64,000 bases of DNA. It comes from Pomacea canaliculata. Its lineage: Eukaryota; Mollusca; Gastropoda; Architaenioglossa; Ampullariidae. The position numbers and the translations under genes were made by a program. Location of the stretch: the NCBI RefSeq assembly GCF_003073045.1, contig NC_037591.1, positions 24,461,319-24,525,318 of the forward strand, given 5' to 3'. The notes beneath the pieces were generated by a model. It was not told the origin of the DNA, searched no databases, and was given only the letters and a program-made list of their open reading frames with translations. Shown here piece by piece: positions 6,447 to 59,856 of this stretch; position 1 is the first letter of the stretch; each line of letters starts with the position of its first letter.

Positions 6447-8449
6447 CTAGTAGACGACAGGTACTCTCAGGACCCATCCATCACTACATCCAATCAGCAG
6501 CTGACCGTTAAGGTCAAGGTTCAGAGCTGTGGGCCGCACCATGTCACCACTGCCAGGAAGGAAGCAGACAAAGTTGATGCCACGGTGTGATACTGTTGTC
6601 ACGTGCACACAGTCGTTCATCCAATCAGCGATCAGCAGCACGTCTTTGCCATAGAAGCAGACGTCTGATGGGAAGAAGTTCTTTTCCTTGTAGGTCGCTA
6701 TGGGGTCGTCAGATTTGTTAGAATACAGACGTACAACACGGGAACGCCGGCTACCCTCTGTATTCTCGTTTGTTTTCATTGATTTATCATCTGAGTTCTT
6801 ATTCTCATCTTCGTCTACTGCAGCAAAGAACGTCCCTTGCTCGTTTGAATCAAAGTTGTGTGCCCTGTGTAACTGTGGGCTCAATAAAAGAGTAAGTGTT
6901 TCTTTTTCATCTCTTTGTTCATCTTCTATTGAACAGATACTAAACACACCCGTTTCAAAGTCCTGACTTAACAAATGCATACTTTTATTCTTAGAACCAA
7001 GATGACAGAACGATGGCTCTTCCCATGGCAAAATGTCATCCTTACGTGTAACGCATGATATCCGCATTCCGTAGTCTGTCTCAGGTCCTCTTGAACCATC
7101 AGAGTTGACATTTACACCTTTCTCTTTAGAGTAGTCGCCTCCTGTTCCGCCATAAAACACATCGATACTTCCGTCCTTCCTCTGCCTCATAGCATGCACT
7201 TCCCGACATCCTCTATCGCCAAATCGACCCACGCGAACGATGTCTGCGGTTTTCTTGCTTGGAAAAATCTGTTTGACTGGTGACCCGATAAATGTCTTCA
7301 TGTAGCGGTCCTCAATGTAGTTATAGAAGTCACCGTGGAGTACATGGCGGTAAGTCGTGACAGGCAGTCCATCTTCTCGTTCTCTCAGTTGCTCTGAGCT
7401 TCCTTCTCCCCGTGTCATCTCTCTCTCCACCTGCAGGACCTCCGTGTCACAGGTGGAACTCAGCGCGTGTTGAGCGCGGGATTGAAGTTTGAGAAGTGAG
7501 TTGAGCTCACCTTGTACTCGCTGTGTGTCAGCGGCCAGATCTTTCTCCAAATCATCGGAAGCTTTCTTGAGTTCCATAAGTGCTTGGTCGCGATCATTTT
7601 GCTTTTTCCTTGCCAGGCACAATGCACGTCATACCGGACTTGATCTGTCGGACGTTAAATAAAACATGCTTGATTGCTAAACTGTTCATACACTGCAACG
7701 TTACCATTAACAAAGTGTTTTTAAGACCTAAAATACTATGGTTTATTTTTATGACCCCCTTTAATTTTAAATATATCTTTAACTTATTACTAATTTTTCT
7801 TTGTTGTTTATATTTTTTATTCTTCCCAATATTTTAGGATTTAATTACCAATGATGCGAAGAAGACCATTAATTACGTTTTTCCATACAAGGTCGGTATT
7901 GCTATTAGAAGGACCTACCTGTTCCGTATACATGTTTGCACAGCTCGCTTTTCTAGGGCTCTTGTTCGCACTTTGTTTACAAAGATTCCAATTTGTTTTT
8001 AGGCGAGTGATCGCATTCTTTAAAGGATTTAATGTTTTTCAATCGTTTTCTTACAGCGAGAGACGTTTCTGGCAAATCTTCAGTAAACATTACCGATGCC
8101 ATCGTGTTATGAGTTTACATCTGTTATACAGATGCTTTGGTCACATTGTGTACAGTAAATATAACACACCCTCCTTAGTGTGTACAGGACACATGGAGTG
8201 ACTTCCCTCAATGCGCGCCCTCTCCAGAGCTTCCTCCGTGAAGTAGAAGTTGACTTGTAGAGCAGACACACCACCTGGCGGTACAGTAGCAGGAGCTCTA
8301 CAGGTAGGACACGGGATGATGTTTCCATATCTGTATGCCAGTTCCTCAAGACACGGTAGACAGAAGGTGTGATGACAGGGTAGGAATCTGGGCGAGGTGT
8401 AAACTTCTGTGCAAACTGCACACGTCATGTTATCCTGCGTGGCAGCCAT
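6447..8449 (-). pseudogene. TRIM-like RING/B-box/propeller gene 1, damaged
   Basis: The first exon homology runs 8449 down to a conserved gtaggt donor at 7919. The RING reads normally (CAVC, then PCHHTFCLPC, then CPTC), but an indel in the B-box creates a stop at 8141, so the open frame is only 102 aa. The second exon homology begins at about 7644 after a cag acceptor. A small net +7 change relative to gene 2 just inside the exon puts the long frame (6447-7622, 391 codons) out of phase with exon 1. The propeller half is otherwise open to the stop and ends RPTALNLDLNGQLLIG. Exon 2 is most like gene 2, so these two form a subfamily. Either it is a young pseudogene or it makes a RING-only product; I favour pseudogene because both exons carry independent damage. 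Confidence 0.75.
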
Positions 8450-8517
8450 GTTTGATCTTTTTTTGATGTTTCGATGCTCACCAAGTTATAAGCTTTTCAT
8501 TCACCCTCAAACAATCC
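8450..8517 (-). promoter_or_regulatory. 5'-UTR segment with conserved splice acceptor
   Basis: On the minus strand a ttatttcag acceptor precedes ggattgtttgag, ending the intron just upstream of the ATG. The same motif lies ~70 nt above the start codon in genes 3, 4, 5, 6 and 7. It implies an upstream non-coding exon, which I could not locate. Confidence 0.55.
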
Positions 8518-9651
8518 CTGAAATAAAAGCATTACCATAGGAGTGTTGTAGGTAATTTAGACATCCAACTGAGTAAATGGACAGAAAGAAATGAAGTGAC
8601 AGGAGAGAGTTAATCTAATATACTTCTTTTGTGCAAGCGTACCCATGATCATATGACTTGGCAAGCATCTTTGTTATACCTACCATTAGTTTTATCGTGT
8701 CTTATATTTATATTTATATTTAACCCTTATATTTATTTTGCTATGCGGGTCAGAAGAAAACTAAAATATCGTGTGCCCCTAAAGCTACGCCAGCCACATA
8801 AATAAGAACACGCCATTATGAACATACCTTCACACTTTGGTTGAAAATCTCTGGTGTAGAGGGTCTGGCATCAACCACGAACTGTTCCAAAAATCTATCA
8901 ATAGGACTTTTACATAACATTATAAACAACAGACTGAACATTCAGCGTGAAAACGACACATCACGATATTTTTATCATTAATGAACACCTATCAACCTTA
9001 AAAGCTAATACCTGCTCTGTTGCTAACACCACTAGAGAGCAAACCTAAGCAGTCTACTCATATTCGTAGAGTTTTCCCTCCGGATATTCCCGATTGTCTT
9101 GCGCTACTTTCACAAAGACCTTTCCTAGAAATTTTTATTTGTTTAATCTCGGGATCGTGTGAAAGACGAACCTCTCGAAGCACTGCTTGCGATATGCAAC
9201 TTCATTATTTCTATTCACTGATCTAAAACCTTCACCACAAAAAGGAAAAAAATGGCACACATCCGAAAAAATGTGTAAACGTTTGCCACGTAACACAGCA
9301 TTCCTCTGTATTCCTGATAATATGACTCATGTCTGTTCATTCCGTTTGTTACTTTGTCTGTCAATTATTTGTATCGCTCTACTAATAAACAAAGTCCAGT
9401 ATTACATCATCTTTGCCCCCAACCCATTAATTAGTGGAGACACAAGAAATCTTTCAATTATTGTGATATGTACAGTAGGTAGTGAGGTCAGCGATTTTGA
9501 TGCATATTTGAGGTTTTGTTCAATTCTCTAGCCATAGAATGTTTACCGGATAAAGAAACCTGTCAAAGGCCATCATACAATGTGACGCGTGAAAAAGTGG
9601 CCAGCCTCCATGGGAAGGTAGGGATCAGGAAGTGTAAGTCGAAGAGATTAA

Positions 9652-9944
9652 TGTCTACTTCTTCTCTACTGACCTTGTACAAGAGATGTTGAAAGTGATG
9701 CCCGGCTGTGTCAATACACGTTTGTGACCGTCGCTGAGATACTGCGAGTGTTGTTCTTCAGGTCATCTAATATTTTTGGATTATCTGCGTAACTGTCGCA
9801 CTCCCGTTGCCCCACAGGTAAAAGTCACAAGTGGTTAGGTCCAGTGAACTCCGAGGCAACAAACCTTTCACTTTGTTCCTACGTTTCCAGTTCGTCACCA
9901 GTCTTTGCAAGCTCCTATATGATGATGTTGTTTCGTCGTGACTG
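9652..9944 (-). mobile_element. Mariner/Tc1-type transposase 3' relic
   Basis: The minus-strand translation gives LVTNWKRRNKVKGLLPRSSL followed by DLTTCDFYLWGN, the mariner-like pattern PPRSPDLTPCDFFLWG near the last catalytic Asp/Glu. After a frame break it reads LDDLKNNTRSISATVTNVY, the usual C-terminal helix. Only this fragment remains; no terminal repeats were seen. A better preserved copy lies at 56719-56997 with the same left boundary. Confidence 0.75.
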
Positions 9945-11694: not shown

Positions 11695-14600
11695 CTAGTA
11701 GTCGACAGGTACTCTAAGGACCCATCCATCCCCACATCCAATCAGCAGCTGACCGTTAAGGTCAAGGTTCAGAGCTGTGGGCCGCACCATGTCACCACTG
11801 CCAGGAAGGAAGCAGACAAAGTTGATGCCACGGTGTGATACTCTTGTCACGTGCACACAGTCGTTCATCCAGTCAGCGATCAGCAGCACATCTTTGCCAT
11901 AGAAGCAGACGTCTGTTGGGAAGAAGTTCTTTTGCGTGAAGGTCGCTATGGGGTCGTTGGATTTGTTAGAATACAGACGTACAACACGGGATGCCCGGCT
12001 ACCCGCTTCACTCTTATTTATCTTTACTAGTTCATCATTTGTGTTCTCACCTTCATCTTCATCTACTAAAGCAAAAAACGTTCCTTGCTCGTTTGAATCA
12101 AAGTTATGTACCCTGTGTGTCTTTGGGGTCAATAAAAAAGAGATACTTTCCTTTTTATCACTTTTTTTCCAATTGATTGAAACTATATGAAGTACACCTG
12201 ATTCAAAGTCCTGAACTAAAGAATGCAGACATTTGTTCTTAGAAGGAAGAGCACAAAATGAGAACTCATCCCATCGGAAAATACTATTCTCACGTGAAAT
12301 GTATGATATCCGCGTTCCGTAGTCTGTCTCGGGTCCTCTACGACCATTAGAGTCAAAACACACGCCTTTCTCTTTAGTATAGTCACCTCCTGTTCCCCCA
12401 TAATACACTTCAATACGTCCGTCCTTTCGCTGCCCCAAAGCATGCACTTCCCGACATCCTCTATCGCCACATCGATCCACTCTAACAATTTCTACGGCTT
12501 TCTTAGTTGGAAAACTCAACTGGACTGGTGACCCGATAAATGTCTTCATGGAGTGGTCCTCAATGTAGTTATAGAAGTCACCGTGGAGTACATGGCGGTA
12601 AGTGTGGACAGGCAGTCCTTCTTCTCGTTCTCTCAGTTGCTCTGAGCTTCCTTCTCCCCGTGTCATCTCTCTCTCCACCTGCAGGACCTCCGTGTCACAG
12701 GTCGAACTCAGCGCGTGTTGAGCGCGGGATTGAAGTTGGAGAAGTGAGTTGAGCTCACCTTGTACTCGCTGTGTGTCAGCGGCCAGATCTTTCTCCAAAT
12801 CATCGGAAGCTTTCTTGAGTTCCATAAGTGCTTGGTCGCGATATTTTGCTGCCATGGCCACAATGACGTCATACCGGACTTGAATCTGTCGGACGTTAAA
12901 TTCAACATGGCTTATTGCTAAACTACTGATATCCTGCAGGTCTTACTAGGAAAGATTTTAGAAATCATATAATACTTTAAAACGTTTACCTATTTATTAC
13001 TTAATTTTACAATACATAGTTTGTAGCAAATTACACTTCTCTGTATTCACTATACAGTGGCGTAGGAACCAGGGGGGCAGCGGGGGCAGCCGCCCCCCCA
13101 AGGAAAATACAGGGGGGGCAGGAATATCCTTTTGCCCCCCCCAATATTTGAGACGTAATTCTCACAAAGAGCAAAGAACTGAAGAAAGGTAGGGGCACGT
13201 AGAGAGGAGACGGTCATCACCGTCACAAAAGCGAGCCCTGAGGCAAGTGGAGGCTCTAACACCTCTGACGATCAGATCGGGGACAGTCCGTTATTGTTTG
13301 CCATGCTAATTGCAGGCTGTGTTGAAGCCTGAGCGAAGAAAGCAGGCGGACAGTACATCGGTACATCGAGTGTGGTCTCCCTCCCCCTCCCCCATAATGC
13401 GACGCCTTTTCTTTGGCGGTTTTCCTTTGACCAACATAAAACATCCCCCATCCACTCGCTGTCACCCTAAAATTATTTGCTATCGCTTACAACCAAAAGG
13501 GGCCGCACTGGCCATCGGGAACACAGAAAGCCAGTAACGAATTAGTTGCATACCAATACCTCAGTATTGCCAATCAGACAGGAACCCTTACACTTTGTGA
13601 AAAGCTAGCGAAACACGAGGACTGCCATCTTACTAGACACCAACGGTTTAGTGCCAATTGACGGCTTTGACTTCACCTAAGTAAGGCAAAGACTCTGAGT
13701 CCCTATATTGGTAGTTTTCTTTAGAGAAAGAGAGACTGGTATTATTGCTATCTACGACTCAGGGGGAAGTGCATAAGTAACATTTCTAAAACTACACAAG
13801 GGCACTCTTTTATCATCAACGACTGTGGCTGGTACTCAACATAAGTTATCTGTGTTATACTGTTTGGTTTGTATATATGTGTCCGTGTTTTGGTAGATGG
13901 CCATTAGAATCGTGTCGCATCGCTGTGCTCAGCACCGTTGGGTAGCTGAGCGAGGAAGGGGTGGCCCGGCCATTCCCACCCTCAGTTTCGTCCCCTGGCC
14001 ACGGTGGTCTGGCCAGTTTATGGCCCTTAATTATAGGGTAGCCTTGCGTCCTTCCTCTCTGGTCTCTTTGATTCTCTTTGGGGTGGATGGGCTATTTTCC
14101 CAGGGTGTGCGGACACCAAGTTCAGGTATAGGGCTGTGTCTCTTTGTAACGTGGATTATCTCGCGGACGCTGGCCCTGTGGGTAGGGAAAGGTTCTGGAG
14201 GTTTCTCGAAGCCTATAGAACCTGCCACACAGGACTGGGAGGACGGCGGAGTTTTTGCGGTGGTGGAGAGACCTGTGCCCGTCTCTGGGAGTTAGTCGGG
14301 GGTTTGCCCGTGCTGTGTGTACTGTCGCTGGAACTGGCGTGGTGTCTAGAAGAGGGTTCCAGCAACCAGCGTATTTTTCCCCGCGTTTGTTGTGAGATAG
14401 AACAAAGCGTGTCACGAGCCGTTGGGTGAGTAGGCTTAATTAACCTTTACCTTTGTTTTTCCACGCAGTTTTTCTTCCTTAAACAAACAAAAAACATACC
14501 TGAGAAGTTCCATGACACAACGCGCTTGAATAACTGTTCTCATTATGCATGTATTTAAAGAGAGGGTTGATCTGCAATGGAGTTCATTAATAGAAATCAC

Positions 14601-15102
14601 AGAAGACGCAGTTTTTTTGGCACACTGACTTGCCAACCTTGATAATATGATTTTATATGATTATAACGTTTTATCACATTTCTTGTGAATGCGTTAGCCG
14701 GGGAGTCATTCTTTAATTTGTTTTTTCTTATTTAATGCTGCTTTGCCTTTTAACAATAAAGCACCGTGTTGTGGATGCTACCACTGTGTACGTGCGTGCA
14801 AGTACCCCCCCCATCCTTTTTTACGTAATGTGCGAGTGCGAACGCCGCTCACTGTCAGCAGGGAGTTTGCCCCCCCAACGCCGAACATCTTCCTACGCCA
14901 CTGCTATATTTTGGATTAAATACAGAAGATGGACATTTGTACCTTTAGCAAGACAAGTTGAATGAACATTACTATTTGAGAAGATCGTTGACTTACCTGT
15001 TCCATTATTGCCGCTCGCTTTTCTTGGACTTGGCAGAAACCTCGGTGACCTGTACACTTCTGAACAGACTGCACACGTCATGTTATCCTGCGTAGCAGCC
15101 AT
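11695..15102 (-). pseudogene. TRIM-like gene 2: intact propeller exon, remnant RING exon
   Basis: The second exon (11695-12885) is fully open, 396 codons plus stop. It starts at the conserved cag acceptor with IQVRYDVIVAMAAKYRDQAL, then has a coiled coil (KKASDDLEKDLAADTQRVQG) and the NHL-like end (PTDVCFYGKDVLLIADWMND; RPTALNLDLNGQLLIGCGDG). The first exon is reduced from 516 to 106 nt (14997-15102). It keeps MAATQDNMTCAVCSEVYRS and PRFLP, then jumps to the exon's distal end and a gtaagt donor. This leaves half a RING, no B-box and phase 1 instead of 0, so the two exons no longer join in frame. A TIR transposon (13055-14903) occupies most of the intron. Possibly still transcribed; a full TRIM protein cannot be made from these two exons. 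Confidence 0.75.
13055..14903. mobile_element. hAT-like TIR transposon (1.85 kb), non-autonomous
   Basis: The left end begins cagtggcgtaggaa and the right end is its reverse complement. Both ends continue into G/C runs (gggggg...gccccccc), typical of hAT-type termini with CAGTGGCGTAG. A ctata pentamer flanks each end, but I do not see a full 8-bp target duplication. No hAT transposase is readable. The interior (about 13900-14430) is GC-richer than its surroundings and has overlapping open frames on both strands with no domain I recognise; it may be captured or nested sequence. The element sits in the intron of TRIM copy 2. Confidence 0.65.
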
Positions 15103-15454
15103 GTTATATGTAGGGATATCTCGCTGCTAAGCAGGTTATCAACTGGTTCAATCGCAAGCTATCCATGATAAAAATCATGGTATAAAGCGGGAGAAAACAG
15201 TTAATTTTTGTAATTTAATATGCGTTTTCTGCACCGAAAGAACTTCTCTAGCCTTTATGTTAAGTGGTATAGTTTTTTCTTTCTTCTCATAATCAGTTTA
15301 GTGTCTTGTACTTAAACTTATCTGTATCTCAAGCTTTGCAAAATCATTTTATAATAGTTTTTACCGTTATTTTTAGATGTATGTCTGTTTCTCCAGTAAT
15401 TTACATACCACTACCGAAGAAGTAAACTTTTTTGGCACTTTTCTCTCGTAGTCC

Positions 15455-15461
15455 CCCCCTC

Positions 15462-15495
<34 letters not shown>

Positions 15496-15500
15496 CATAC
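15455..15500. repeat. (CT)n(CA)n microsatellite
   Basis: Consecutive ct then ca dinucleotide runs. The partner copy at about 60215-60240 is shorter, as expected for slippage after duplication. Confidence 0.85.
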
Positions 15501-17304
15501 ACAATCAATCGTGAATACTGAAAAACATTTCCGTTTTAACGTTTATTATAACTGTCAAAAGAAAGCTATTCTATGGAAGATCATCAAGTAAAGCCGTCCT
15601 GGCGGGTAGTACAGTAAAACCTCTGTATTAAGATTAGGTATAATCCATCGAAATCACCTTTTCTTACTCCTAACAGATAGATAAACCAGTCTGCTTTTAT
15701 TCCTCAAGCCATGACTTCAAACACATGTGCAGTTTAGACAGAAGTTTAGGTTTTGAGCATCAATGAACGAGTAAATATCAAATATAAAGAAAAATTACAA
15801 TTTAGAGTTTTAAGAGACTTTTAGAGCTTTTTTTGGACTTTAGAGTTAGAATTTAGAGTTAGGCTTCTTGATCAATAGGAAAAGGAAAAAAATCATGTAA
15901 TCGGAGTTACCGGTTTAACCTTCATGTACGCAAGACGTACACAAGATTTGTGTGTGTGTGTGTGAGAGTGTGTGGGAACCAGTATTATATTTTTTGGAAA
16001 GCAAATCTTTAGTAAGATTTTTGCCCTTGATAGTTTTATCAACTATCTTTGACAAAACCGTTAGCTTATCCATCATCTGACTGATCTGATAACACTACAA
16101 TGGATCATAATACACACACACAGTCTCTGTTTGTTTATCCATACATTGTGTTTAGCCATCACAGGTGACCGTTGTGACGTTTCATCCATTTTTCGAGCCG
16201 TTCGTGGCCTGGAAATCATTCGATCCTCCAGCCGCTGCCAGACACAGAGTTTTTTTCCGCATGAGTTTTCTTTGTCTTACTCGCACTAGATTGGTACCGC
16301 TTCTCGATTCCGCCATGTTGTACGGTAAGTAACCCTGGGTTAGAGCAATCAGAGGTTTGTAGATGTACATACCTATGGACCAACAGATTCAGGTCCATAC
16401 TCAGGGGCAGGCAGACGAGGAATCTGTGTAGGAGCCAGCGCTTTTAATTAATATGCTAATTAGGCTCCTAATTAATCCCCGTGGGGGCTAAGAGAGGCCT
16501 GAACAGATCATTACGTGTACTGAGGTGGAAAAGCATATCTGTAGTGTAAACAGTTGACCAGAAGTAGTCTTTTTTATAATGTACTATTTTTTTTAATACA
16601 AATTTCTGTCCAAAGTCGATATAGAGCTTAAACTGTCGGTCGTAAGGTGAGTTGTGGAGGTGATCTGATTAGAGATGTTACTTATACAGAGAAATACATC
16701 CAAGAAAAATGTTTGAGTCGTAACTAAGAGTGGGTCTTAATCGGGAAGATTTTTATGGAGAGGTTTTACTGCAACAGCAAACAAATTAGACACAAAAGTA
16801 CAAAAAGTCAAAATTAATAATCATATTTCCATTACTCCTAGTACAATAAAGAAAGAAAATCTGATGTAAACTATGCGTCACTGTGCATAACCATATAAAA
16901 ACATATAACCATAGAAAAGACAACAGCAAGAACACAGTAGCCTTAACACAACAACAGTAGCAACAGATATTTGAATGTTAACTTTACCTGCCTTAAGTTA
17001 TTAAAATAGTACTTAGGTATTAATCCTTCTCTTTCATTTCTTAAGTAATCACAAACTAGAATGTTGTGAGACTTCTGTTCAATATCACAAGTTTTAGTTA
17101 GCATGGTGCAGTTAGGATATCAGTATGCTACAATCACTGTGTGAACTCAAAGAATTGTTATTTAAGATTCCTAACTCATAATAGAGTCATATAGTTTTCA
17201 CATGAGAAAAAGGCTTTATAATATATCATTCGAATAGACATTCCTTTCATACAATTCATAGCACTATAATGTGGATATACATGTCAAATAAACATTTTCT
17301 TAAC

Positions 17305-17845
17305 TTATTTAAGCCAGTTTGTGAAAATGTTCATATCCTCCTGTTGGTCTAAAATCCACGACAGCCTTGAACTATTCAATAAATGTTCAATTGCAGTAAT
17401 ATGATCAGAAATAGTTTTTATAATGACAAACAAGTTGTAAATAAATGGATAACCAATACTAGAAAATCTGGGTACATTTGAAAGATTAACTAAGTTATAC
17501 AGACAGCAGTGTCGTAATTTGTGCAATAACATCTAAAGAAAACCTACTAAACTCCTAAAGTGCCGTTTACCAGGATTTTTGTTGTTCTTGGTAAAAATGC
17601 AAAATACTCATAATAGCACAAATATAATATTATATAATGATTACAAGAACCAAAGTTAACATTTTACAACGATATGATAATATAGGGGCAATATTCTTAT
17701 GAAATAATCCCACCTGTACGTCTGCAGGAAGTAAAAGCTTTCGATATGTATATAGAAGTGAGAATATTGCCTTATGTGTTTGATCATGAACAATTGTACG
17801 CTGTTCAAGCCAGGGATAACTGATGGTTAGGACTGAGTTTAACAC
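17305..17845 (-). mobile_element. LINE reverse-transcriptase C-terminal relic
   Basis: The minus strand reads LNSVLTISYPWLEQRTIVHD, then KAIFSLLYTYRKLLLPADVQ and VGLFHKNIAPIL. This is the post-catalytic thumb/connection pattern of non-LTR reverse transcriptases (QA.KA..SL...LP.D....LFD....PIL.YG). A further open piece (17305-17532), ending SSRLSWILDQQEDMN, continues the same C-terminal domain. The catalytic core is missing. A paralogous decayed copy is at 61645-62170. Confidence 0.6.
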
Positions 17846-18965
17846 CTACAAATAATAAGTCAATCATTACTTTGACACTTTCCTATTAAACAAGCAGTGT
17901 ACATGTTTTCCCTCTTGAAAAGACAATAACTTTAGTTTTCACACTAACATACAAATCCTACCTGGCACAATGTCATGACACAACACTGAGAGCATCTTGT
18001 AATTTTTTCATATTCAGAACATATCATCAGCTTACAAACATAGGAACATCTGGTACAGAATTTTTACATCATCATTTGACACCAGTTGCTATTCATGAAA
18101 AAGATTGCAGACCATCAATGTTTCTGAGCCAAAAGGACTTTAAATCGTTTAAAAAGAAAATCAGACCAATGGCCATAGATTTCCTCTTACCGTAAAATAA
18201 CCTGAAAGGTATTTAATTACCCTGAAGTAAGTGTTGGCCTCGGTGTGCATAGTCTTCGTGGCTTGAAAAAATATCCTCTAATATCTATGTTAAACAATTT
18301 TTAAGAAGAAAAAATCTTTATTTTATCAAATTTTCATAGTCAATAAACGCACAAAAAGACGTTTCCTTCTCTTTAACAGGAAGTTTGTTATACTAAGTAA
18401 ACAAATGATCAAGTGTGGTCCGACTTTCTAGTTATACAGAACAACACATCGAGCACTAAGCTCCCGCACACTATTACTATGTGAAGTTACCTAATTTTTA
18501 TTTACATCAGTCTTTGACATATGTTGCCAATCGTTAGTCATTCTTCTATGTTACCATAGATCACCATCTTTATTTTCTGTGGCAGTAATTTTGTGAGATA
18601 TTTCCGAAATTTCTTTACCAAACTATTTCGATTTTGAGCGACACAAGTCTTCAAAATAAAGTCATAGTTGGATTTCTAGTCATGATTAATTCATTGCCGT
18701 AGAAAATTCCTTGAAATATTCCTTTGCAAAAGACTATGGAAACATTTTCCGCGATGTGACCCACACTTGGTGGACTGTAAGTAAAAAAAAACTTCTGGAG
18801 ACCAAAGTTCTGAGCGGAGCCCGCTTCAAACTATCATGTCACTTTATTTCTTTCCTTGTCTTTCTGTTTAGCAAAATACATTTCACTGCAAGTTGTTCGA
18901 TATATACAGAATGAAAGATATCAGCACAAATTTCAATTTTGACAAAACGGTTTGGCTGACAAAAA

Positions 18966-19583
18966 AATACGAAGGATGTTATTCCAATGTAATTTTAATT
19001 GACATAGAAACGACCTTAAATCTCCTTTTCATATATTTAAAAAAAAAAAAAAACAAAAAAAAAAAAAAACCAAACAAAAAAAAAAAACAGTTAACAGCAC
19101 AATTCTTCTAAAACTTGTACACTTACATTTATACCCTAATGAATGTTAACATTAAGGGATAGTTACATTGTTTTATTCCTTTATAAAACGGAAAAAAAAG
19201 TCTAAAACTAGTCTCAGTGATTCGACTACATGGGATGCTTCACGCACTCGAATGATGCTGGCTATTGTGGGAGAATAAAGAAATTCCTAGCAAAAATATT
19301 GTTTACCATTATTTGTATGAGAAAAAGAAAGAAAGAACTGAAAAAAGAAGACTCTCAAGCACCATACTCTTGCAAGCATTATTTACATCATCAGCATAAG
19401 TTTTGGAAATGCAAAGTGGGAACGGCTTCAGTGCTGTGTTAATTTTTATTAAGAGATCTTTTTTCTTGTTCATAATCGCCCCCAGTGGAGGATAGGGCGG
19501 CAACTTTATCAGGAGATGCTCCCTGTTATTTATTTTATTGAAAATTATTTATTGCTCCATATGTTATTTTGATAGATGTACGA
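18966..19583. other. Poly-A-rich spacer and 3' flank of gene 3
   Basis: A long interrupted A run lies at about 19037-19090; the rest is AT-rich and probably holds the gene 3 3'-UTR. No gene was seen. Confidence 0.5.
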
Positions 19584-21873
19584 CTATTGATAAAAATAGA
19601 AAAAGTTGTATCGGGAAATCCAGCCATCGCCACACCCAATAAGCAGGTGGCCGTAAACATCAACGTTTAAAGCTGTTGGCCGCACAATGTTACCATTGAC
19701 TGGCAGGTAGCTGATAAATGTGATCCCATCGTCATCTACATGTGTAACGTGTACGCAGTCGTTCATCCAATCAGAAATCAACAACTTTTCACCCCAAAAG
19801 CAGACGTCTGTTGGGAAAAACGGTTGTAGTGGTGGTGTGTAGGTGGCTACAGGTTTGTTAGATTTATTAGAATAAACACGTACAACACGACGGGACCTTC
19901 CTTTGCACGTGTTCTCTTCATCTTTTATAATTGATTCATTTGAAGTTTCATCTTTATCTTCGTCTACTACAGCAAACAACATCCCGTGTTTGTCAGCATC
20001 AAAGTTATGTATCTTGTTTACTTCTGGGTTGAGTAAATGAGAACCGAAACACCATGTCTCCTTCTCGTCTCTTTGTTCCAACTTAATTGAACTTATGAAA
20101 CACTCACCTGTCGTACAGTTCTGATTTATACAATACATGCCAGCATCCTTTGAAGCGAGAATTCTCTTCTCTTGTCCTTCCCATTCCACTATGTGATCTT
20201 TTCGTGTCATGGGTGATATTCTTTTTCCGGGTTCAGCAACACCACTTGGAATGTTACGCCTGAAAATAACTGACTTCTCCTTAGAGAAGTCACCTCCTGT
20301 TCCCCCATAAAATACCTCCATACGTTTATCCTCCTTCTGCCGCAAAGCGTGCACCTCGCAGCATTCTCCATCCCCGCATCTAACATTGGTAATCAATCTG
20401 CAACTGTTCTCAATCTGTTTTGTCAGCTTCACTGGCCATCCTATGTACATCTTCACGCAGTTTTCAATGTCGTTAGTGAAATCGCCATGGAGTCCAGGAA
20501 AGTAAGTCACAGTAGGCCGTCCAGCCCTTAGTTCTGTCAACCACTCGGCGCTTCCTTCTCCCCGTGTCATCTCTCTCTCCACCTCCAGGACCTCCATGTC
20601 ACAAGAGGAACTCACCGCCCGTCGAGCTCGTTCTTTAAGCTTTAAGAGGAAGTTGGCCTCGTCTGTTACTAACTGTGTCATGGCGGTAAACTCTTTCCTC
20701 AGACTCTCTGACATTTCCTCAAGATTTCTCATCGCCTGGTCACGATATCTTCCTGCCATAGCCACAATGGCGTCATGCCGGACTTGAATCTGACAGAAAA
20801 CAACTTCATGGTTAAACATGTTTCGGTATTTGAACTTTCCTCTCTCCCCTAAACGGTAAATATGTTCGTATACTAAACTTATTTCGGGGCTGGATGGTGA
20901 GGTTTTACTGCTTCTACTTTTGTGGAGCCAGCATTTTGAGTAAGGAGGGGGGGGGGGGTGCGAAGGTAGTCCCATCTACTCTTACTCGTACTGCTTCATC
21001 TTTCCAAACCTTTTGTGAGGTCAGGTATACATTCCCTCAGCTAGGAGAAGTATGCCCTACATAGGTATGGAACAAACGCGCCTCCGGGTCCGGACACGAC
21101 TGTTCTAAACACTTGACTATTTGCTTTCTCGAAATCACAGAAAAACTTTGAAAAACATTGTGCACTGATTTATTATTTTATTCATAAAATACATAACAAC
21201 CAAAATATGTTATTAAAGGGTTTTAAGGTTATGTATTGAGACCTTAGAGAAACAAAAACATTGATGCAAAAGAAGACAACAAAAACAATAGATGGTCATG
21301 CAAACATCGAGATGCACAAAAAGATTTCAAATTTTATGTCATATATCTGTGACCTACCTGATTTAATAATGCAATTTTTTTTTCTTCTAAATGCGTCTTG
21401 TGTTCTTCAAAACAGAATTTTTGCTTTTCTAGAATACCAATTGAAGTGTCAAGACGACCCAGTTCATGTTCAATCGTTTGTTTACAGCGAGCGACTGCAT
21501 CTGACAGATCTTCTGTAACGTGTCCCTCGTGTTTGGTCAGTTTACACCTGGTACATATGGCTTGGTGACACTGTGTACAGTACAATACAAGACGTTTCTG
21601 TGTGTGTACAGAACACATAGACTGACTTCCCTCACTACGCGCCTGCTCCAGAGCTTCCTCCGTGAAGTAGAAGTTGACTTGTAGAGCACGCACACCACCT
21701 GGCGGTACAGTAGCAGGAGCTCTACAGGTAGGACACGGGATGATGTCTCCATGTATATTTGCCAGCTGCTCAAGACAGTGAAGACAGAAGGTGTGATAAC
21801 AGGGCAGAAACCTCGGTGATGTGTAAACTTCTGTGCAGACTGCACACGTCATGTCAACCTGAGTAGCAGCCAT
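19584..21873 (-). CDS. TRIM-like RING/B-box/propeller E3 ligase, gene 3
   Basis: A two-exon coding gene. Exon 1 is 21358-21873 (172 codons, gtaggt donor, phase 0) and exon 2 is 19584-20789 (401 codons + stop), giving about 573 aa. Exon 1: C3HC4 RING (residues 10-50: CAVC, PCYHTFCLHC, CPTC), then a B-box2 (about 87-118: CSVH, CTQCHQAICTRC, KHEGH). The coiled coil spans the exon join. Exon 2 opens IQVRHDAIVAMAGRYRDQAM and ends in an NHL-like beta-propeller (FFPTDVCFWGEKLLISDWMN; RPTALNVDVYGHLLIGCGDG). By family knowledge such proteins are cytoplasmic ubiquitin E3 ligases in which the propeller binds substrate or RNA; the substrate here is unknown. An open frame runs through the intron upstream of exon 2, but the conserved acceptor sets the true exon start. 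The intron holds a tRNA-derived SINE. Confidence 0.88.
20885..21137 (-). mobile_element. tRNA-derived SINE in intron of gene 3
   Basis: The minus-strand head resembles the A box and B box of a Leu/Ser-type tRNA (tcaagtgtttagaacag near 21115; a decayed B box near 21070). The body ends with gtaaaacctcaccatccagc. The same element lies at the same intron position in genes 4-7, so it was present before those genes duplicated. A long G run lies near 20944-20958. Confidence 0.6.
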
Positions 21874-26742: not shown

Positions 26743-31528
<4,786 letters not shown>

Positions 31529-42481: not shown

Positions 42482-43475
42482 CTGTCGCGTAGCGCGATCA
42501 TTCTCTGCGGGACTTGCTCTCACAGACACACACTCACAGTCACACATTCACAGTCACACATTCACAGTCACACACTCACAGTCACACACTCACAGTCACA
42601 CACTCACAGTCACACATTCACAGTCACACATTCACAGTCACACACTCACAGTCACACGCGCCCGACGTGAGCAACGAAGCCAATCGCTCCTCAGTGAACA
42701 GATAAACACACAAACGTAGGGTCTGTACAAAATACATGTTTATTAGTGGCCACTAGATGCGACCGACCAACTCAAAAAGAGGAAAGAAAGACAAAAGAAA
42801 AGAAAACGAAAGAGATGAAAAAAAGCTCCAGTGAATAGCATTGACTAACTTGCAAACAAATATCCCCACAAAATAAAAACAAAACGAATCACCCGGTACC
42901 TGCACAGCCCAGCACCGCACAAAGGCTCAACTACACAAAATAAAAGATAGCCTCTCCTAGACACTGACTAGGGCAACACATAACCACTGCCCTCCATCGT
43001 CCCCTCCCACAACACTCCTATGGTCAGCAGCCCAGCAGTCCGTCCTCAGCTGACATTTCTCTGACGACGAGATACTGGTTGCTAGGATCCGCTCCATGCA
43101 CCAAGCGAGGGACCACACCAAGTAAAATCTCAGCACTTCAGTATCTCTCCGTACCTAACTTCTTCTCGTGGCTAATTTCGAATCCCTACAATATATACTC
43201 ACGGTCTAACGTTCGAGAGAAAAAAAAAAAAAACTTCTACTTTTCCCACACTTCTATATTCTCATCCTTATTACTATTTAAGACCAGCAATACTGACCCT
43301 GCCAGGTGTGCAACCATCCAGTCTCCAGAGCCCATAATCTACATCTCACTACATACCGGTCTCTTGCTTCTAAATAGTCTCCACCAAGATGCGCGGCACC
43401 CACACAAAAGATACAACCAGCTACACTACCGCCGGGCATCCTCCTGACCCTTGCACTCCACCACCTCTGCAGCAA
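42482..43475. mobile_element. LTR-like fossil in 3' flank of gene 6
   Basis: Starts tgtcgcgtagcg and ends near gcaagacacgcg, like the copies at 24775 and 49260. No coding interior. It differs from the 49.3-kb copy mainly by single-base losses in short runs. Confidence 0.4.
42521..42655. repeat. 14-bp minisatellite (cacacactcacagt)n
   Basis: About nine to ten tandem units with c/t variation at one position. Confidence 0.9.
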
Positions 43476-44122
43476 GACACGCGAAAAAAAAAAACCATCT
43501 CATTTTTTATGTATGGTTTTTTTTCAATTGATGATCATGTAACAATATTTCACCCCACTTTGAACGGTCGTTGACCCATCAAATAAACAGTCCAGTTCAT
43601 TTCACTCACTGATCACTATTTTACACAGTCTTCGTGAAAATTAGCAAAATATTTTGAAAGAGATGAGCATCACACCACTCCATCTATTCATTTGTATAGA
43701 AACTGACATATTAGTGTAAAAAGTACTTATAACCAATGCAATCTGCCAGTACAAAATGACATATTCTATGACAAAATACATACACTCATTTATTTGTTAA
43801 TGCTGACAAGACAGCTCGACTGTTTAATCAAATCCACACTAACTCAAAATGTGAGTTCTGGTGCAGGTACAGAACATGTGTATCAGTCTGCCAAAGCCAG
43901 TAATAAGAAATCATGTAAAAGATTTCTTTTTCCAAAAAATCATTAATGTAATTAATACGATAACTTCATCTATCCCTGTTTTCATTCATCACAAATCCAA
44001 GAATCTTATCAGACTTTCATTCTTTCACTGCTGGTTAAATAAACAAAAGCTAAGCTGAGACCTGCAACGCAACTCTGACATGATGTGACCTGGTGACACT
44101 GGATTTTCTCACAATCTAAAAA

Positions 44123-46187
44123 CTATCTATCGACGTCTGTTGGGAAAAACGGTTGTACTGGTGGTGTGTAGATGGCTATAGGTTTGTTAAATTGATTGGA
44201 ATAAACACGTACAACACGACCGGACCTTTCTTTGCACGTGTTCTCTTCATCTCTCCCACATGATTCATCATTTGAAGTTTCATCTTTATCTTCGTCTACC
44301 ACAGCAAACAACATCCCGTCTTTGTCAGCATCAAAGTTCTGTATCCTGTTTACTTCTGGATGGATTAAAGGAGAACCGAAACACCATGTCTCCTTCTCGT
44401 CTGTTTGTTTCAACTTAATTAAACTTATAAAACACTCACCTGTCGTACAGTTCTGATTTATACAATACATGCCGGCATCCTTTGAAGCGAGAATTCTCTT
44501 CTCTTGTCCTTCGCATTCCAATATGAGATCTTTTCGGGTAATGGGTGATACTCTTTTTCCGTACTTATGCTCAGCAACAGCTCTTTCATGATAAAAGCCC
44601 ATGAAAATCCCTGACCTCTCTTTGGAGAAGTCACCTCCTGTTCCCCCATAAAATACCTCGATACTTCTATCCTCCTTTTGCCGCAAAGCGTGCACCTCAC
44701 GACATTCTCCATCTCCGCATCTAATATCGGTAATCAATCTGTAACTATCTCCAATCTGTTTTGTCAGCTTCACTGGCGATCCTATGTACATCATGACGCA
44801 GTTTTCAATGTCGTTAGTGAAATCGCCATGGAGTCCAGGAAGATGAGTCATAGAAGGCCACCTATCAATTACTTCTGTAATCCGCTCGGCGATTCCTTCT
44901 CCCCGTGTCATCTCTCTCTCCATCTCCAGGACCTCCGTGTCACAGGCTGAACGCACCGCCCGTACAGCTCGTTCCTGAAGTTTGGAAATGGAGTTCACCT
45001 CGTCTGTTACTGGCTGTGTCATGGCGGTAAACTCTCTCCTCAGACTCTCTGACATTTCCTGAAGATTTCTCATCGCTTGGTCACGATATCTTCCTGCCAT
45101 AGCCACAATGGCGTCATGCCGGACTTGAATCTGACAGAAAACAACTTCATGGTGAATCCTTTTTCGGTATTTGAAATTTACTCTCCCTAAGCCGTAAATA
45201 TGTTACTTTAGGGGTTGGATGTGGAGGTTTTACTGCTTCATCTTCTCTGTAGCCAGCGTTTTTCACGGGGTTGTGGTGGTGGGGGGGGGAGGTTCCTATC
45301 TGCTCCAACTCGCGCTGCTTTATCTTTATCATTCCAAATCCTTTGTGGGGTCAGGTACCCATAACCCCGACTGTGAGAAGTCTGCCTACACAGGTATCGA
45401 ACCAACGCCCATCTAGGTCCGGCGTTGACTGTTTTAGCTAAACACTTGACTATTTGCTTTCTCGAAATCCCCGAAAACTGTAAAAAGCACTGTGCACTGA
45501 TTTTTTATTTATTCATCACAACCAAAACCTTTTATAAGAGCTCTTAATGTTATTATTAAGACCTTAGAGAAAAGAAATGCAAACACTGACGCAAAAGAAG
45601 ACAACAGAAACAATGGTCATGCACACATTGCGATACACAAACAGATTTTATGTCATATATCAGTGACCTACCTGCTTCGTTAATGCAACTTGTTTTTCTT
45701 CTAAATACTTCTTGTTTTCTCTAAAACATTGTGTTTTCCATTCTAGAATACCAATGAAATTACCAAGACGATCCAGTTCATGTTCAATCGTTTGTTTACA
45801 GCGAGCGACGACGTCTGCCAGATCTTCAGTAACGTGCCCCTCGTGTTTGGTGAGCTTACATCTGATACAGATGGCTTGGTGACACTGTGTACAATACAAT
45901 ACAAGACGCTTCTGTGTGTGTACAGGACACATGGACAGACTTTTCTCACTACGCGCCTGCTCCAGAGCTTCCTCCGTGAAGTAGAAGTTGACTTGTAGAT
46001 CACACACACCACCTGGCGGTACAGTAGCAGGAGCTCTACAGGTAGGACACGGGATGGTGTCTCCATGTCTCTTTGCCAGCTCCTCTAGACACTCTAGACA
46101 GAAGGTGTGATAACAGGGCAGAAACCTCGGTGACCTGTAAACTTCTCTGCAGACTGCACATGTCATGTTATCCTGCGTAGCAGCCAT
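44123..46187 (-). pseudogene. TRIM-like gene 6, C-terminally truncated by deletion
   Basis: Exon 1 (45672-46187) is intact: RING CAVC, PCYHTFCLEC, CPTC; B-box CPVH, CTQCHQAICIRC, KHEGH. Exon 2 (44123-45130) is open for 335 codons but stops at PFFPTDVDR. Alignment with gene 7 shows that 589 bp (equivalent to 50923-51511) are missing, with the junction at 44132/44133 and about 1 bp of shared sequence. The deletion removes the last ~75 residues, including the ISDWMNDC and RPTALN blades of the propeller, together with the natural stop and 3'-UTR. The ~507-aa product would keep the RING, B-box and coiled coil and might act as a truncated partner of the paralogues; I score it as a broken copy. Confidence 0.8.
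45210..45470 (-). mobile_element. Intronic tRNA-derived SINE, gene 6
   Basis: Same position and structure as in genes 5 and 7; B box ggttcgatacc on the minus strand near 45400. Confidence 0.65.
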
Positions 46188-51285: not shown

Positions 51286-53570
51286 CTACTTTCCAAAATA
51301 AGAAGCGGAAAAGTAATCTCGTAGAAACAAGCCATCGCCACACCCAATGAGCAGGTAGCCGTAAACATCAACATTTAAAGCTGTTGGCCGCACTATGTTA
51401 CCACTGACTGGCAGGTAGTCGACAAATGTGATCTCATTGTCATCTACCTTTGTAACGTGTACGCAGTCGTTCATCCAATCAGAAATCAACAACTTTTTGC
51501 CCCAAAAGCAGACGTCTGTTGGGAAAAACGGTTGTACTGGTGGTGTGTAGGTGGCTACAGGTTTGTTAGATTGATTAGAATAAACACGTACAACACGATG
51601 GGACCTTTCTTTGCACGTGTTCTCTTCATCTTTCCTACATAATTCATCATTTGAAGTTTCATCTTTATCTTCGTCTACCACAGCAAACAACATCCCGTCT
51701 TTGTCAGCATCAAAGTTATGTATCCTGTTTACTTCTGGATGGATTAAAGGAAAACCGAAACACCATGTTTCCTTCTCGTCTGTTTGTTCTAACTTAACTG
51801 AACTTATAAAACACTCACCTGTCGTACAGTTCTGATTTATACAATACATGGCGGCATCCTTTGAAGCGAGAATTCTCTTCTCTTGTCCTTCCCATTCCAT
51901 TATGTGATCTTTTCGTGTGATGGGTGATACTCTTTTGCCGTACTCATGCTCAGCAACAGCTCTTTGACGATCACAAGCCATGAAAATCGCTGACCTCTCT
52001 TTAGAAAAGTCTCCTCCCGTTCCTCCATAAAATACCTCGATACTTTTATCCTCCTTTTGCCTCAAAGCGTGCACCTCACAACATTCATTATCTCCAGGTC
52101 TAATACGGGTAAAAAACCATGAACTATTCTCAATCTGTTTTGTCAGCTTCACTGGCGATCCTATGTACATCTTGACACAGTTTTCAATGTCGTTAGTGAA
52201 ATCGCCATGGAGTCCAGGTAGATCAGTCATAGAAGGCCACCCAGCACTTTGTTCTCTCAACCGCTCGGCGTTTCCTTCTCCCCGTGTCATCTCTCTCTCC
52301 ACCTCCACGACCTCCATGTCACAGGCTGACCTTAGCGCGTGTACAGCTCGTTCCTTAAGTTTGAGAAGGGTGTTCTTCTCGTCTATTATTGGCTGTGTCA
52401 TGGCGGTGAACTCCTTCCTAGCACTCTCTGACAATTCCTGAAGATTTCTCATCGCCTGGTCACGATATCTTCCTGCCATAGCCACAATGGCGTCATGCCG
52501 GACTTGAATCTGACAGAAAACAACTTCATGGTTAATCTTTTTTCGGTATTTGAAATTTACTCTCCCTAAGCCGTAAATATGTTACTTTAGGGGTTGGATG
52601 TGGAGGTTTTACTGCTTCATCTTTTCTGTAGCCAGCGTTTTCACGGGGTGGTGGTGGTGGGAGGGTCCTATCTGCTCCAACTCGCGCTGCTTTATCTTTA
52701 TCATTCCAAATCTTTTGTGGGGTCAGGTACCCATACCCCCGACTGTGAGAAGTCTGCCTACACAGGTATCGAACCAACGCCCATCTAGGTCCGGCGTTGA
52801 CTGTTTTAGCTAAACACTTGACTATTTGCTTTCTCGAAATCCTCGAAAAACTGTAAAATGCACTGTGCACTGATTTTTTATTTTATTCATCACAAACAAA
52901 ATCTTTTATAAGAGGCTCTTAATGTTATATATTAAGACCTTAGAGAAAAGAAATGCAAACACTGAGGCAAAAGAAGACAACAGAAACAATGGTCATGCAC
53001 ACATTGCGATACACAAACAGATTACGGATTTTCTGTCATATATCAGTGACCTACCTGCTTCGTTAATGCAACTTGTTTTTCTTCTAAATACTTCTTGTTT
53101 TCTCTAAAACATTGTGTTTTCCATTCTAGAATACCAATTGAAACATCAAGACGACTCAGTTCATGTTCAATCGTTTGTTTACAGCGAGCGGCGGCGTCTG
53201 CCAGATCTTCAGTAACGTGTCCCTCGTGTTTGGTGAGCTTACATCTGGTGCATATGGCTTGGTGACACTGTGTACAATACAATACAAGACACTTCTTAGT
53301 GTGAACAGGACACACGGACAGACTTCCCTCACTACGCGCCTCCTCCAGAGCTTCCTCCGTGAAGTAGAAGTTGACTTGTAGATCACACACACCACCTGGC
53401 GGTACAGTAGCAGGAGCTCTACAGGTAGGACACGGGATGGTGTCTCCATTTCTCTTTGCCAGCTCCTCTAGACACTCTAGACAGAAGGTGTGATGACAGG
53501 GAAGAAACCTCGGTGATGTGTAAACTTTTGTGCAGACTGCACACGTCATGTTATCCTGCGTAGCAGCCAT
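51286..53570 (-). CDS. TRIM-like RING/B-box/propeller E3 ligase, gene 7
   Basis: Exon 1 is 53055-53570 and exon 2 is 51286-52509, joined in phase 0 for ~579 aa. RING ligands C10, C13, C25, H27, C30, C33, C47, C50. B-box2 ligands C87, H90, C99, C102, C107, C110, H115, H118. Coiled coil about 120-260 across the junction after Gln172. The propeller is about 270-579, starting near GLHGDFTNDIENCVKMYIG, with an acidic loop DEDKDETSNDE and NHL-like blades from about residue 502 (PTDVCFWGKKLLISDWMNDC; RPTALNVDVYGYLLIGCGDG). It is the best full-length reference in the array. Start chosen at MAATQDNMTC, which is conserved in all copies. Family knowledge: TRIM proteins with NHL-like propellers are E3 ubiquitin ligases or RNA-linked regulators; function here is inferred only. 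Confidence 0.9.
52590..52841 (-). mobile_element. Intronic tRNA-derived SINE, gene 7
   Basis: Same element and site as in genes 3-6; B box ggttcgatacc near 52770. The GGT-rich stretch is shorter here. Confidence 0.65.
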
Positions 53571-57598: not shown

Positions 57599-57611
57599 AA
57601 CTACTTTTGCA

Positions 57612-57924: not shown

Positions 57925-57937
57925 AACTACTTTTGCA

Positions 57938-58266
57938 ATTAGTGACAAAAACTAGATGTTTGCAACATGGAACCTTCTTCCATGAGTACTGCTCACTTAA
58001 CGTGTTTTGTGGAATTTTTCATTAACTCCAAATGGTGAATAGGAATGGACATTAACAGTTCCCAAACTCTAATAAGTAACACATGCATATATACATCATA
58101 TATTCAGCGAGAAAATCCCATCTTGGTATATTTTTGTTATTGATGAAACCATATCAAACTTAAGGCTAATGCCTTCTCTGGTGCTTATGGTACTTGACAA
58201 AAATAAATCTACGTAGATGTGTAGACTTCTTACTTCGGATATTCCCGATTTTATCTTTTAGGTCGT
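57938..58266. other. Intergenic remnant of array flank
   Basis: No gene. 58090-58250 resembles 8940-9110 above TRIM copy 1. Confidence 0.4.
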
Positions 58267-58281
58267 TGACGGGGGCGGGGG

Positions 58282-58450
58282 GGGGGAATTGGTGTTTTAC
58301 GCCGTGTCAGCAACTAAGGCAAGCAGCCAGCCCTGTAAACAGATGCCACGTGCAGTGAAAGAACAGCGTGCCCGAGACGAGAAATGAACTCTGGGCAGCA
58401 AACCTTCACTGCATTGGTGACAGGCGCTAACCGTTGCGCCACCGGACCGC
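58282..58450 (-). mobile_element. tRNA-derived SINE, copy B, with target duplication
   Basis: Same family as 55965-56147 (ggtggcgcaacggttagcgc head, gacacggcgtaaaacaccaa body). Flanked by tgacgggggcggggg at 58267-58281 and 58451-58465, a perfect 15-bp duplication. Confidence 0.85.
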
Positions 58451-58465
58451 TGACGGGGGCGGGGG

Positions 58466-59577
58466 ATGTGAAGTGTTAGAAACCTCACTTTTCTCGGGAC
58501 CAGCTTCATGCGAGGGCGGTGTCCATCTCCTCTCCCTATTGCCTTAACTTCATGAACCCTATGGAGTGAGGTACCCACTAGCAACAGGTGGTCGACTGGG
58601 CGAAGATTGTGGTGCAATACCTGTCTTATGACTCCACGCCGATTAGTAGATCCCTCCCCTGGAAATTCGCAATGTTAGTAAACGCATTCCGAGCGAAGAT
58701 TTTGAGGGGCACCTTTACCACATTTTCAGTGTGTTCTTATTACATCCCACAGTGTAAAGTAGCAAAACGACAAGCTATAATGATACCTTAATGTACATCT
58801 TGTCGCTATACCAATGAAAGACATGCTGCTAGAGCAGTATAAGTCAAAGTATTTATGGCTATGTTGACTTAGACACACCTAGTCAAGCAAGTGAGCGCTA
58901 CTTATTTCATCTTGTTGACTCTCGTTTACTTTCACTCTGTGATGGTTAGTCTACACGTCTCATATCAAGCTCGAATTTTTAAAAATGGCAGGAATGCAAG
59001 TCGTGTACAAAATCTTACAAAATATTCTCATATTTAGTACACATACTAACAATAATTATAATCTTTACTGCTTGAACTTACCTCTATCAAATGTGAAGAC
59101 TCGTTTCTAATGTTCTTCCCCTTTGCCTTGGTCACTAGTTCACTAGTTGATTACCTCCATGAAGATTCGGTGTACTGCAAAAGCACAGCTGTCAATCCTG
59201 TTTTCAAGAAATACCGAGGCCCTAGTCAGTGGTAGCTAAGTAAATAAAGTTTGGCCAGACTTGTACACAGGTCGTTGCTGCCCTTGTTACTTCCGTCTTT
59301 CCCCTCCAATCATTTCCATTTTGTTATCAGGTAGTCACGAGTTGTTATACGTGGCGCACAAAAGGTGAGACGGGCTGATCACACTCTCGACACCTCTACC
59401 AACTCACACCGGGATTTACGTACGCGCACACTTACACTAAATTGATGAAGAAAGTTGTTAATAATCGAGAGTATTTCAAAAAATTTAGAAAATGAAACAA
59501 TGTCAGATATGACCGTTCTCTATAGGCGTCCCGTTATTTCTCTATCCCTCATTGCCTTAACTACTACACACAGCACA
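58466..59577. other. Intergenic region above the orphan RING fragment
   Basis: 58466-58620 looks like the body of another repeat (cctatggagtgaggtaccca). 58620-58760 resembles the array flanks near 4560 and 24270. The rest shows nothing I can name. Confidence 0.4.
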
Positions 59578-59856
59578 CTACACTCGTGTAACATATATTC
59601 GCCACTCATCTTTCCACACAAAAGTCTCTTGCCACGTGGAGGGCCCTCCGATATTGCAGACGTCGTATCCTCCGTAGATCGTAGCGGCCTTCGTCACGAG
59701 CGCTGAGACTCTGGCATCGACGTGTGTCACCACGTGTCTCGTCCTCACCTCCTCTAGACACTCTAGACAGAAGGTGTGATGACAGGGCAGAAACCTCGGT
59801 GACCTGTAAACTTCTGTGCAGACTGCACACGTCATGTTATCCTGTGTAGCAGCCAT
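59578..59856 (-). pseudogene. Orphan half RING exon (TRIM copy 8)
   Basis: Homology to exon 1 covers only 59750-59856: MAATQDNMTCAVCTEVYRS, PRFLPCHHTFCLECLEE, that is six of the eight RING ligands. It then runs into unrelated sequence; the open frame continues to 59578 without a known domain. No B-box and no propeller exon lie downstream. Its upstream flank is the partner of the 15-19 kb segment. Confidence 0.85.

What the first reader, a model, noticed from the sequence alone, without database searches (positions are those of the whole stretch)
6447..59856. Tandem TRIM-like array showing birth and death of copies
Eight RING exons and seven propeller exons lie in one orientation within 54 kb. 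Four are intact, one is C-terminally deleted, two are damaged at exon 1 and one is an orphan half exon. Such fast turnover of RING/B-box/propeller genes resembles immune or conflict-driven families (TRIM expansions in other animals), but immunity here is inference.
Basis: partly seen in the sequence, partly recalled or inferred. Interest (0 to 1): 0.7.

Follow-up and report, generated by a model that had tools for sequence, protein, structure and literature searches.

The report
Fast-evolving TRIM-like gene cluster
This stretch, probably from an apple snail, is part of a crowded cluster of TRIM-like genes whose target-binding half is changing unusually fast while the enzyme half stays fixed, the pattern expected of genes locked in an arms race.

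Summary
In detail: eight RING exons (two are halves) and seven propeller-like exons, all minus strand; four genes intact, one C-terminally deleted, two damaged at exon 1, one orphan half exon. The window is about a sixth of a 378-kb cluster with about 43 exon-2 loci in a 440-Mb animal genome (probably Pomacea canaliculata). Of 32 exon-2 loci read, 15 belong to complete two-exon genes (568-587 aa). RING and B-box pass Pfam cut-offs; the C-terminal part matches TRIM2/TRIM3 NHL structures only through a profile widened with two relatives (best E 7e-6, over ~57 positions). The interpretation gains support: in the window's subfamily exon 2 shows strong diversifying selection (about 20% of sites at dN/dS near 4.8; 2dlnL 94.5 against at most 18.9 in 32 recombining null simulations; six of six segments on their own trees). 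RING+B-box is constrained (0.31; p=0.6). Simple counting averages below 1, and another subfamily shows little. Exon 2 is mosaic: gene G differs from E and F by 2-3% in the intron but 12.5% in the first half of exon 2. Best reading: a TRIM-NHL-like E3 family with a diversifying, conversion-shuffled recognition module. Immunity, expression and copy-number variation are untested.

The parts
6447..7592 (-). gene A exon 2 (coiled coil + NHL-like part); its first codons are damaged
8111..8497 (-). gene A exon 1, damaged: frameshifts and stops in the B-box
11695..12885 (-). gene B exon 2, open frame
15031..15111 (-). gene B exon 1 relic: only the first part of the RING
19584..20789 (-). gene C exon 2, intact
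21358..21873 (-). gene C exon 1 (RING + B-box), intact, 172 aa
26743..27960 (-). gene D exon 2, intact
27961..31012 (-). gene D intron, 3,052 bp, contains a plus-strand 217-aa frame with a sub-threshold MULE transposase match
31013..31528 (-). gene D exon 1, intact, 172 aa
37277..38491 (-). gene E exon 2, intact
39050..39565 (-). gene E exon 1, intact, 172 aa
44123..45130 (-). gene F exon 2, last ~74 codons deleted (588-bp deletion relative to G)
45672..46187 (-). gene F exon 1, intact, 172 aa
51286..52509 (-). gene G exon 2, intact
51912..52509 (-). tract of gene G exon 2 that differs 12.5-12.6% from E and F while the adjoining intron differs 2.4-3.3%
53055..53570 (-). gene G exon 1, intact, 172 aa
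59734..59865 (-). H: orphan half RING exon (ATG at 59856), no exon 2 found in the window
41468..44132 (.). spacer below F, 98% identical to 48239-50922 below G: recent duplication
15032..18967 (.). spacer above the B relic, shared with the spacer above H (59786-63872; 93, 84 and 82% in three blocks)

Best explanation
A tandem family of TRIM-type genes: exon 1 encodes RING + B-box, exon 2 a coiled-coil-like helical stretch and a C-terminal part related to the NHL propeller of TRIM2/TRIM3/TRIM71. Shown: copies multiply by local unequal duplication and die by deletion, truncation and frameshift; in the subfamily that fills most of the window exon 2 and the end of exon 1 diversify under positive selection while RING and B-box are held; exon-2 stretches have been exchanged between copies. 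Inferred: the proteins are cytosolic ubiquitin ligases in which a constant catalytic half is coupled to a varied target-binding half, and the selection comes from antagonists that change (viruses, parasites or mobile elements), as in TRIM5 and the fish finTRIMs but with an NHL-like propeller in place of PRY/SPRY.
For: Architecture: Pfam RING and B-box over cut-off; 15 complete genes of 32 loci read. Fold: profile with two relatives hits TRIM3 NHL E=6.7e-6 and TRIM2 NHL E=2.5e-4; the distant relative L039 alone hits TRIM71 NHL E=0.004. Selection in 8 exon-2 copies: M1a-M2a p=8e-29 on all 407 columns, 2dlnL 94.5 on 354 gap-cleaned columns, six of six segments positive on own trees, 9.7 to 33.2 each; null simulations with recombination reach at most 18.9 in 32 runs, without at most 6.8 in 16. 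Exon-1 tail dN/dS 1.86, p=1e-6; RING+B-box control 0.31, p=0.6. Exchange: PHI 0-1 of 500 permutations in four sets; G-E and G-F intron against exon-2 contrast p=4e-9 and 5e-11; conversely G-Z intron 30% but exon-2 pS 12%. Copies of one subfamily lie side by side.
Against: Counting by Nei-Gojobori gives pooled pN/pS 0.79 for this exon 2 (28 pairs, 0.46-1.11), so the average is not above 1 by that method. Subfamily 2 (6 copies): M0 0.53, p=0.003, a value (2dlnL 11.4) that 6 of 32 recombining null runs of subfamily 1 also exceed; subfamily 3 (3 copies): p=0.02. Without the two relatives the profile's best TRIM-NHL hit is E=0.055, behind coiled-coil matches to ATP synthase, and Pfam NHL was matched by 2 of 18 members, best E=0.17. 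Only the last ~60 residues are supported as NHL-like; the rest of the 'propeller' matches nothing. No expression, ligand or ligase data. Own codon-model code, not PAML.
Confidence: 0.6

Rival explanations
1. Relaxed constraint after duplication: the copies are redundant, many are dying, and exon 2 drifts.
For: More than half of the loci read are broken (17 of 32), and average pN/pS is near but under 1 by counting.
Against: RING and B-box of the same genes are constrained (dN/dS 0.31); relaxed sites cannot give a class at 4.8, and simulated relaxed null data stay far below the observed likelihood gain.
Confidence: 0.12
2. Diversifying selection of another origin: a reproductive, allorecognition or developmental E3 family (for example degrading diverging gamete or egg-fluid proteins), not defence.
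For: The sequence evidence names no partner; reproductive and self-recognition families also show duplication, conversion and positive selection (established knowledge, recalled).
Against: The architecture has no signal peptide or membrane part that I noticed (not tested), which fits intracellular targets; TRIM families with this pattern whose role is known are antiviral (PMC2657112 passages).
Confidence: 0.2
3. The selection signal is mainly a by-product of gene conversion and alignment error among mosaic paralogues.
For: Mosaicism is real, and recombination does inflate the test: 12 of 32 recombining null runs exceed 5.99 nominal.
Against: Observed 94.5 against a null maximum of 18.9; each of six short segments on its own tree is positive; gap-adjacent columns were removed; RING+B-box, also recombining (PHI on exon 1), gives no signal.
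Confidence: 0.08

Closest known systems
TRIM-NHL proteins (TRIM2, TRIM3, TRIM71, TRIM32; also TRIM56, whose C-terminus resembles NHL without clear repeats)
   Same: RING, one B-box, helical stretch, NHL-related C-terminus; profile match to TRIM3/TRIM2 NHL. PMC2533329 (passages) says TRIM56's C-terminus shares similarity with NHL although no clear repeats are detected, as here.
   Different: In mammals the NHL TRIMs belong to the conserved group 1, single genes (PMC2533329 passages); here about 43 loci in tandem with positive selection. No filamin domain and no repeat over Pfam's cut-off.
finTRIM family of teleost fish
   Same: Large lineage-specific TRIM expansion; PAML M2a with 15.6% of B30.2 sites above 1 and no signal in the later RING-B-box part once split at the breakpoint (PMC2657112 passages); here about 20% of exon-2 sites and none in RING+B-box.
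   Different: finTRIM recognition domain is B30.2/SPRY; here it is not SPRY (no SPRY match) but NHL-like.
Primate TRIM5/TRIM22 antiviral genes
   Same: Constant RING/B-box, changing coiled coil and C-terminal recognition domain (general knowledge; PMC2657112 passages for TRIM5 alpha).
   Different: PRY/SPRY, few copies, tested antiviral function.
Other TRIM expansions in invertebrates
   Same: 140 genes annotated as TRIM in the sea urchin S. purpuratus, several induced in coelomocytes (PMC13043383 passages); TRIM listed among expanded families of the snail Gigantopelta aegis (PMC7895826 passages).
   Different: Those passages report no cluster anatomy, positive selection or conversion; Aplysia is given 22 TRIM genes (PMC9334734 passages).

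Membership tests
TRIM/RBCC | N-terminal C3HC4 RING | tested here: met
   Pfam over cut-off in 3 of 3 scanned; ligand pattern present in 18 of 18 exon-1 copies tested
TRIM/RBCC | B-box zinc finger | tested here: met
   zf-B_box over cut-off in 3 of 3 scanned. My own B-box pattern matched none of 18 because its last spacing was set too long; that result is discarded
TRIM/RBCC | coiled coil after the B-box | tested here: inconclusive
   No coiled-coil predictor run; profile of exon 2 weakly matches helical ATP synthase subunits at positions 11-94
TRIM-NHL (class VII / subfamily C) | C-terminal NHL repeats forming a propeller | tested here: inconclusive
   TRIM3 NHL E=6.7e-6 with the widened profile but E=0.055 without; Pfam NHL 2 of 18, best E=0.17; structure prediction switched off
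Group-2 TRIM / finTRIM | C-terminal PRY/SPRY (B30.2) | tested here: not met
   No SPRY or PRY among the matches listed for 18 exon-2 members at E up to 10
Conflict-driven (arms-race) families | positive selection on the recognition part | tested here: met
   subfamily 1; weak in subfamilies 2 and 3
Conflict-driven (arms-race) families | copy-number or allelic variation, induction by infection | not testable with these tools
   one assembly, no relatives held, no RNA-seq
RING E3 ubiquitin ligase | ligase activity | not testable with these tools
   zinc ligands intact only

The most novel reading that the evidence does not exclude
An invertebrate has built, on an NHL-like propeller, the equivalent of TRIM5/finTRIM recognition: a single-locus repertoire of some 40 exon-2 modules in which gene conversion shuffles blocks and positive selection diversifies them, coupled to a constant RING/B-box, giving a large and individually variable set of intracellular pathogen-specific ubiquitin ligases.
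Probability: 0.4. Interest if true: 0.8.

Novelty: new variant of a known kind. Interest (0 to 1): 0.62.

Why it matters
Vertebrate work separates slowly evolving NHL-type TRIMs from fast SPRY-type antiviral TRIMs (PMC2533329, PMC2657112). If an NHL-like propeller has become the fast recognition part here, propellers are a second scaffold for evolvable TRIM recognition, and molluscs, which lack adaptive immunity, would have a compact, testable intracellular repertoire. The single locus makes population tests easy: 173 resequenced genomes of the probable species exist (PMC11417965, passages).

Tried and rejected
Structure prediction of exon 2 was switched off, so fold was judged from profiles only. 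Single-sequence PDB search of exon 2 gave 14-3-3 chance matches at E 0.4 and worse. Amphioxus, coral or annelid origin: GFP and annelid haemoglobin-linker families did not match, but the controls did not ring either, so these are uninformative. Species: size, 40% GC and long-scaffold length fit the P. canaliculata assembly (PMC6129957 passages: 440.07 Mb, 14 chromosomes, GC 40.3%, longest 45.4 Mb), and '24 scaffolds' is recalled; that paper's stated shortest scaffold, 27.2 Mb, does not fit C10 (26.5 Mb) and C11 (24.3 Mb), though its own N90 is 23.7 Mb. A coordinate check failed: the Sqrdl variant reported at Chr2:23,398,320 (PMC11417965) has no recognisable counterpart among five frames of C2:23,396,001-23,400,500 (one sub-threshold P450 match), so the numbering differs or the species call is wrong. 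Whether exon-1 relatives exist outside the cluster did not complete; nor was a whole-genome NHL search (60, 65, 68, 72, 74) or a mollusc haemocyanin search (79, 83, 86). Papers: ten searches listed no report of positive selection or conversion in an invertebrate TRIM-NHL array; the library is partial, and the four-apple-snail genome paper is not held.
Full report
Observation. Four genes (C, D, E, G) are complete, F has lost its C-terminal codons, A and B are damaged at exon 1 and H is an orphan half exon. F's loss is a 588-bp deletion relative to G: F's exon is continuous with G's to position 51511 and then with G's downstream sequence from 50922. The spacer below F is 98% identical to that below G over 2.7 kb, and B and H share the spacer above them, so units including spacers are duplicated.

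The array is larger than the window. The window is C2:24461319-24525318 of a 440-Mb genome. A search with the G exon 2 scored 59 candidates and returned 56 matches: 54 lie at C2:24.192-24.570 Mb, which I merge by hand into about 43 loci (2 on the plus strand), one at C2:19.864 Mb and one weak, partial match at C10:13.656 Mb. A RING family search scored 150 of 357 candidates; 36 of the 150 fall in this cluster (6 in the window), 38 in C11:10.86-11.62 Mb and 16 in C2:30.72-30.99 Mb (my count). One gene read from each of the other two clusters is RING plus B-box in a single exon with no C-terminal family, so they are different families. The outlier at 19.86 Mb is a complete two-exon gene (177 + 445 aa, GT donor, AG acceptor).

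State of the cluster. I read 32 of the about 43 exon-2 loci (21 in a 200-kb stretch, 7 in the window, 4 in flanked hits). Fifteen belong to genes with both exons open, an ATG, GT donor, AG acceptor and a stop, 568-587 aa; the other 17 are broken, truncated or lack a good exon 1 (the judgement on fragments is by eye). Eleven loci were not read.

Domains. RING and B-box exceed Pfam's cut-offs. Exon 2 has no Pfam family over cut-off. A profile of 18 cluster members finds TRIM3 and TRIM2 NHL structures only at E=0.055 and 0.4, behind coiled-coil chance matches. Adding the outlier L040 and the distant relative L039 raises TRIM3 NHL to E=6.7e-6 and TRIM2 to 2.5e-4, over profile positions 330-386; L039 alone hits TRIM71 NHL at E=0.004 and passes Pfam's cut-off for a propeller repeat, Reg_prop. 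I therefore call the C-terminal end NHL-like; the stretch before it is unassigned and the full propeller is inference.

Selection. Codon alignments of 19 exon-2 and 18 exon-1 copies fall into three subfamilies that also lie together on the chromosome. For subfamily 1 (C, D, E, F, G of the window and three neighbours; K, frameshifted, left out of exon 2) my own maximum-likelihood site models give M0 omega 1.13, and M2a puts 23% of sites at 4.65 against M1a, p=8e-29. Removing gap-adjacent columns leaves 354 of 403: M0 1.00, 20% at 4.77, 2dlnL 94.5. Cutting exon 2 into six segments with separate trees gives 2dlnL 14.2, 12.5, 9.7, 16.1, 16.5, 33.2 (sum p=2e-16; last segment without F). In null simulations with no positive selection the statistic reached at most 6.8 in 16 runs on one tree and at most 18.9 in 32 runs with a different tree per segment; the second shows real inflation (12 of 32 above 5.99) but not of this size. 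Control: RING+B-box of the same genes, omega 0.31, p=0.6; of subfamily 2, 0.46, p=0.94. The last 44 codons of exon 1: 1.86, p=1e-6.

Against. Nei-Gojobori pooled pN/pS for subfamily 1 exon 2 is 0.79 (pairs 0.46-1.11), 0.51 in subfamily 2 and 0.96 in subfamily 3. Site tests are weak there (p=0.003 and 0.02, one tree each), and subfamily 2's value lies within what recombining null data for subfamily 1 gave in 6 of 32 runs. So the strong claim is for subfamily 1.

Exchange between copies. Gene G differs from E and F by 3.3% and 2.4% in the intron, 4.2% and 4.8% in 1 kb of 5' flank, but 12.6% and 12.5% in the first 598 bases of exon 2 (Fisher p=4e-9, 5e-11); E and F show no such contrast (p=0.31). 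Synonymous sites rise too (pS 0.11-0.12), so this is not selection on amino acids alone: a diverged exon-2 tract has been brought in, or the flanks homogenised. Conversely Z and G differ by 30% in the intron but 12% at synonymous exon-2 sites. PHI tests reject no recombination in four of four sets (0-1 of 500 permutations). Segment trees disagree.

Mechanism. Most likely a constant RING/B-box half ubiquitylates whatever a varied coiled-coil/NHL-like half binds. Shown: constraint on the first, diversification and exchange in the second, birth and death of copies. Inferred: ligase activity, cytosolic place, and a moving antagonist as the cause. In the two NHL-like repeats, the sites with highest posterior (columns 362, 372, 391, 393) would sit at strand c-d and a-b turns, on one face, if the recalled NHL topology holds; this is a guess until a structure exists.

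Comparison. finTRIMs were tested with the same models: 15.6% of B30.2 sites above 1, little in RING-B-box after a recombination split (PMC2657112 passages). Mammalian NHL TRIMs are in the conserved group (PMC2533329 passages). An NHL-like fast-evolving module is the difference here. TRIM expansions are reported in sea urchin and a vent snail without such analysis in the passages seen.

Species. Probably Pomacea canaliculata by assembly size, chromosome-scale contigs and GC, but one coordinate check failed.

Noticed in passing
29729-30382 (+), inside gene D's intron: A 217-aa plus-strand frame with a sub-threshold MULE transposase match (E=0.12); an insertion probably explains the enlarged intron.
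   Followed up: partly
24811-24886, 42519-42657, 49295-49421: A 14-base tandem repeat (CTCACAGTCACACA) sits in three paralogous spacers with about 6, 10 and 9 copies.
   Followed up: no
42968-43447 and 49867-50331 (+): Two near-identical open frames of 159 and 154 codons in the duplicated spacers; no evidence that they are genes.
   Followed up: no
L041 (C11:11.20 Mb) and L042 (C2:30.96 Mb): Two further large clusters of single-exon RING + B-box genes without a C-terminal family, 38 and 16 of the 150 scored RING matches.
   Followed up: partly
L040 (C2:19863301-19867000): A complete two-exon relative 4.3 Mb from the cluster (exon 2 about 40-43% identical), a candidate for an old single copy.
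   Followed up: partly
L039 (C10:13655001-13657500): A distant relative with one long open frame (433 codons) and a recognisable propeller repeat that links the family to TRIM71 NHL.
   Followed up: yes
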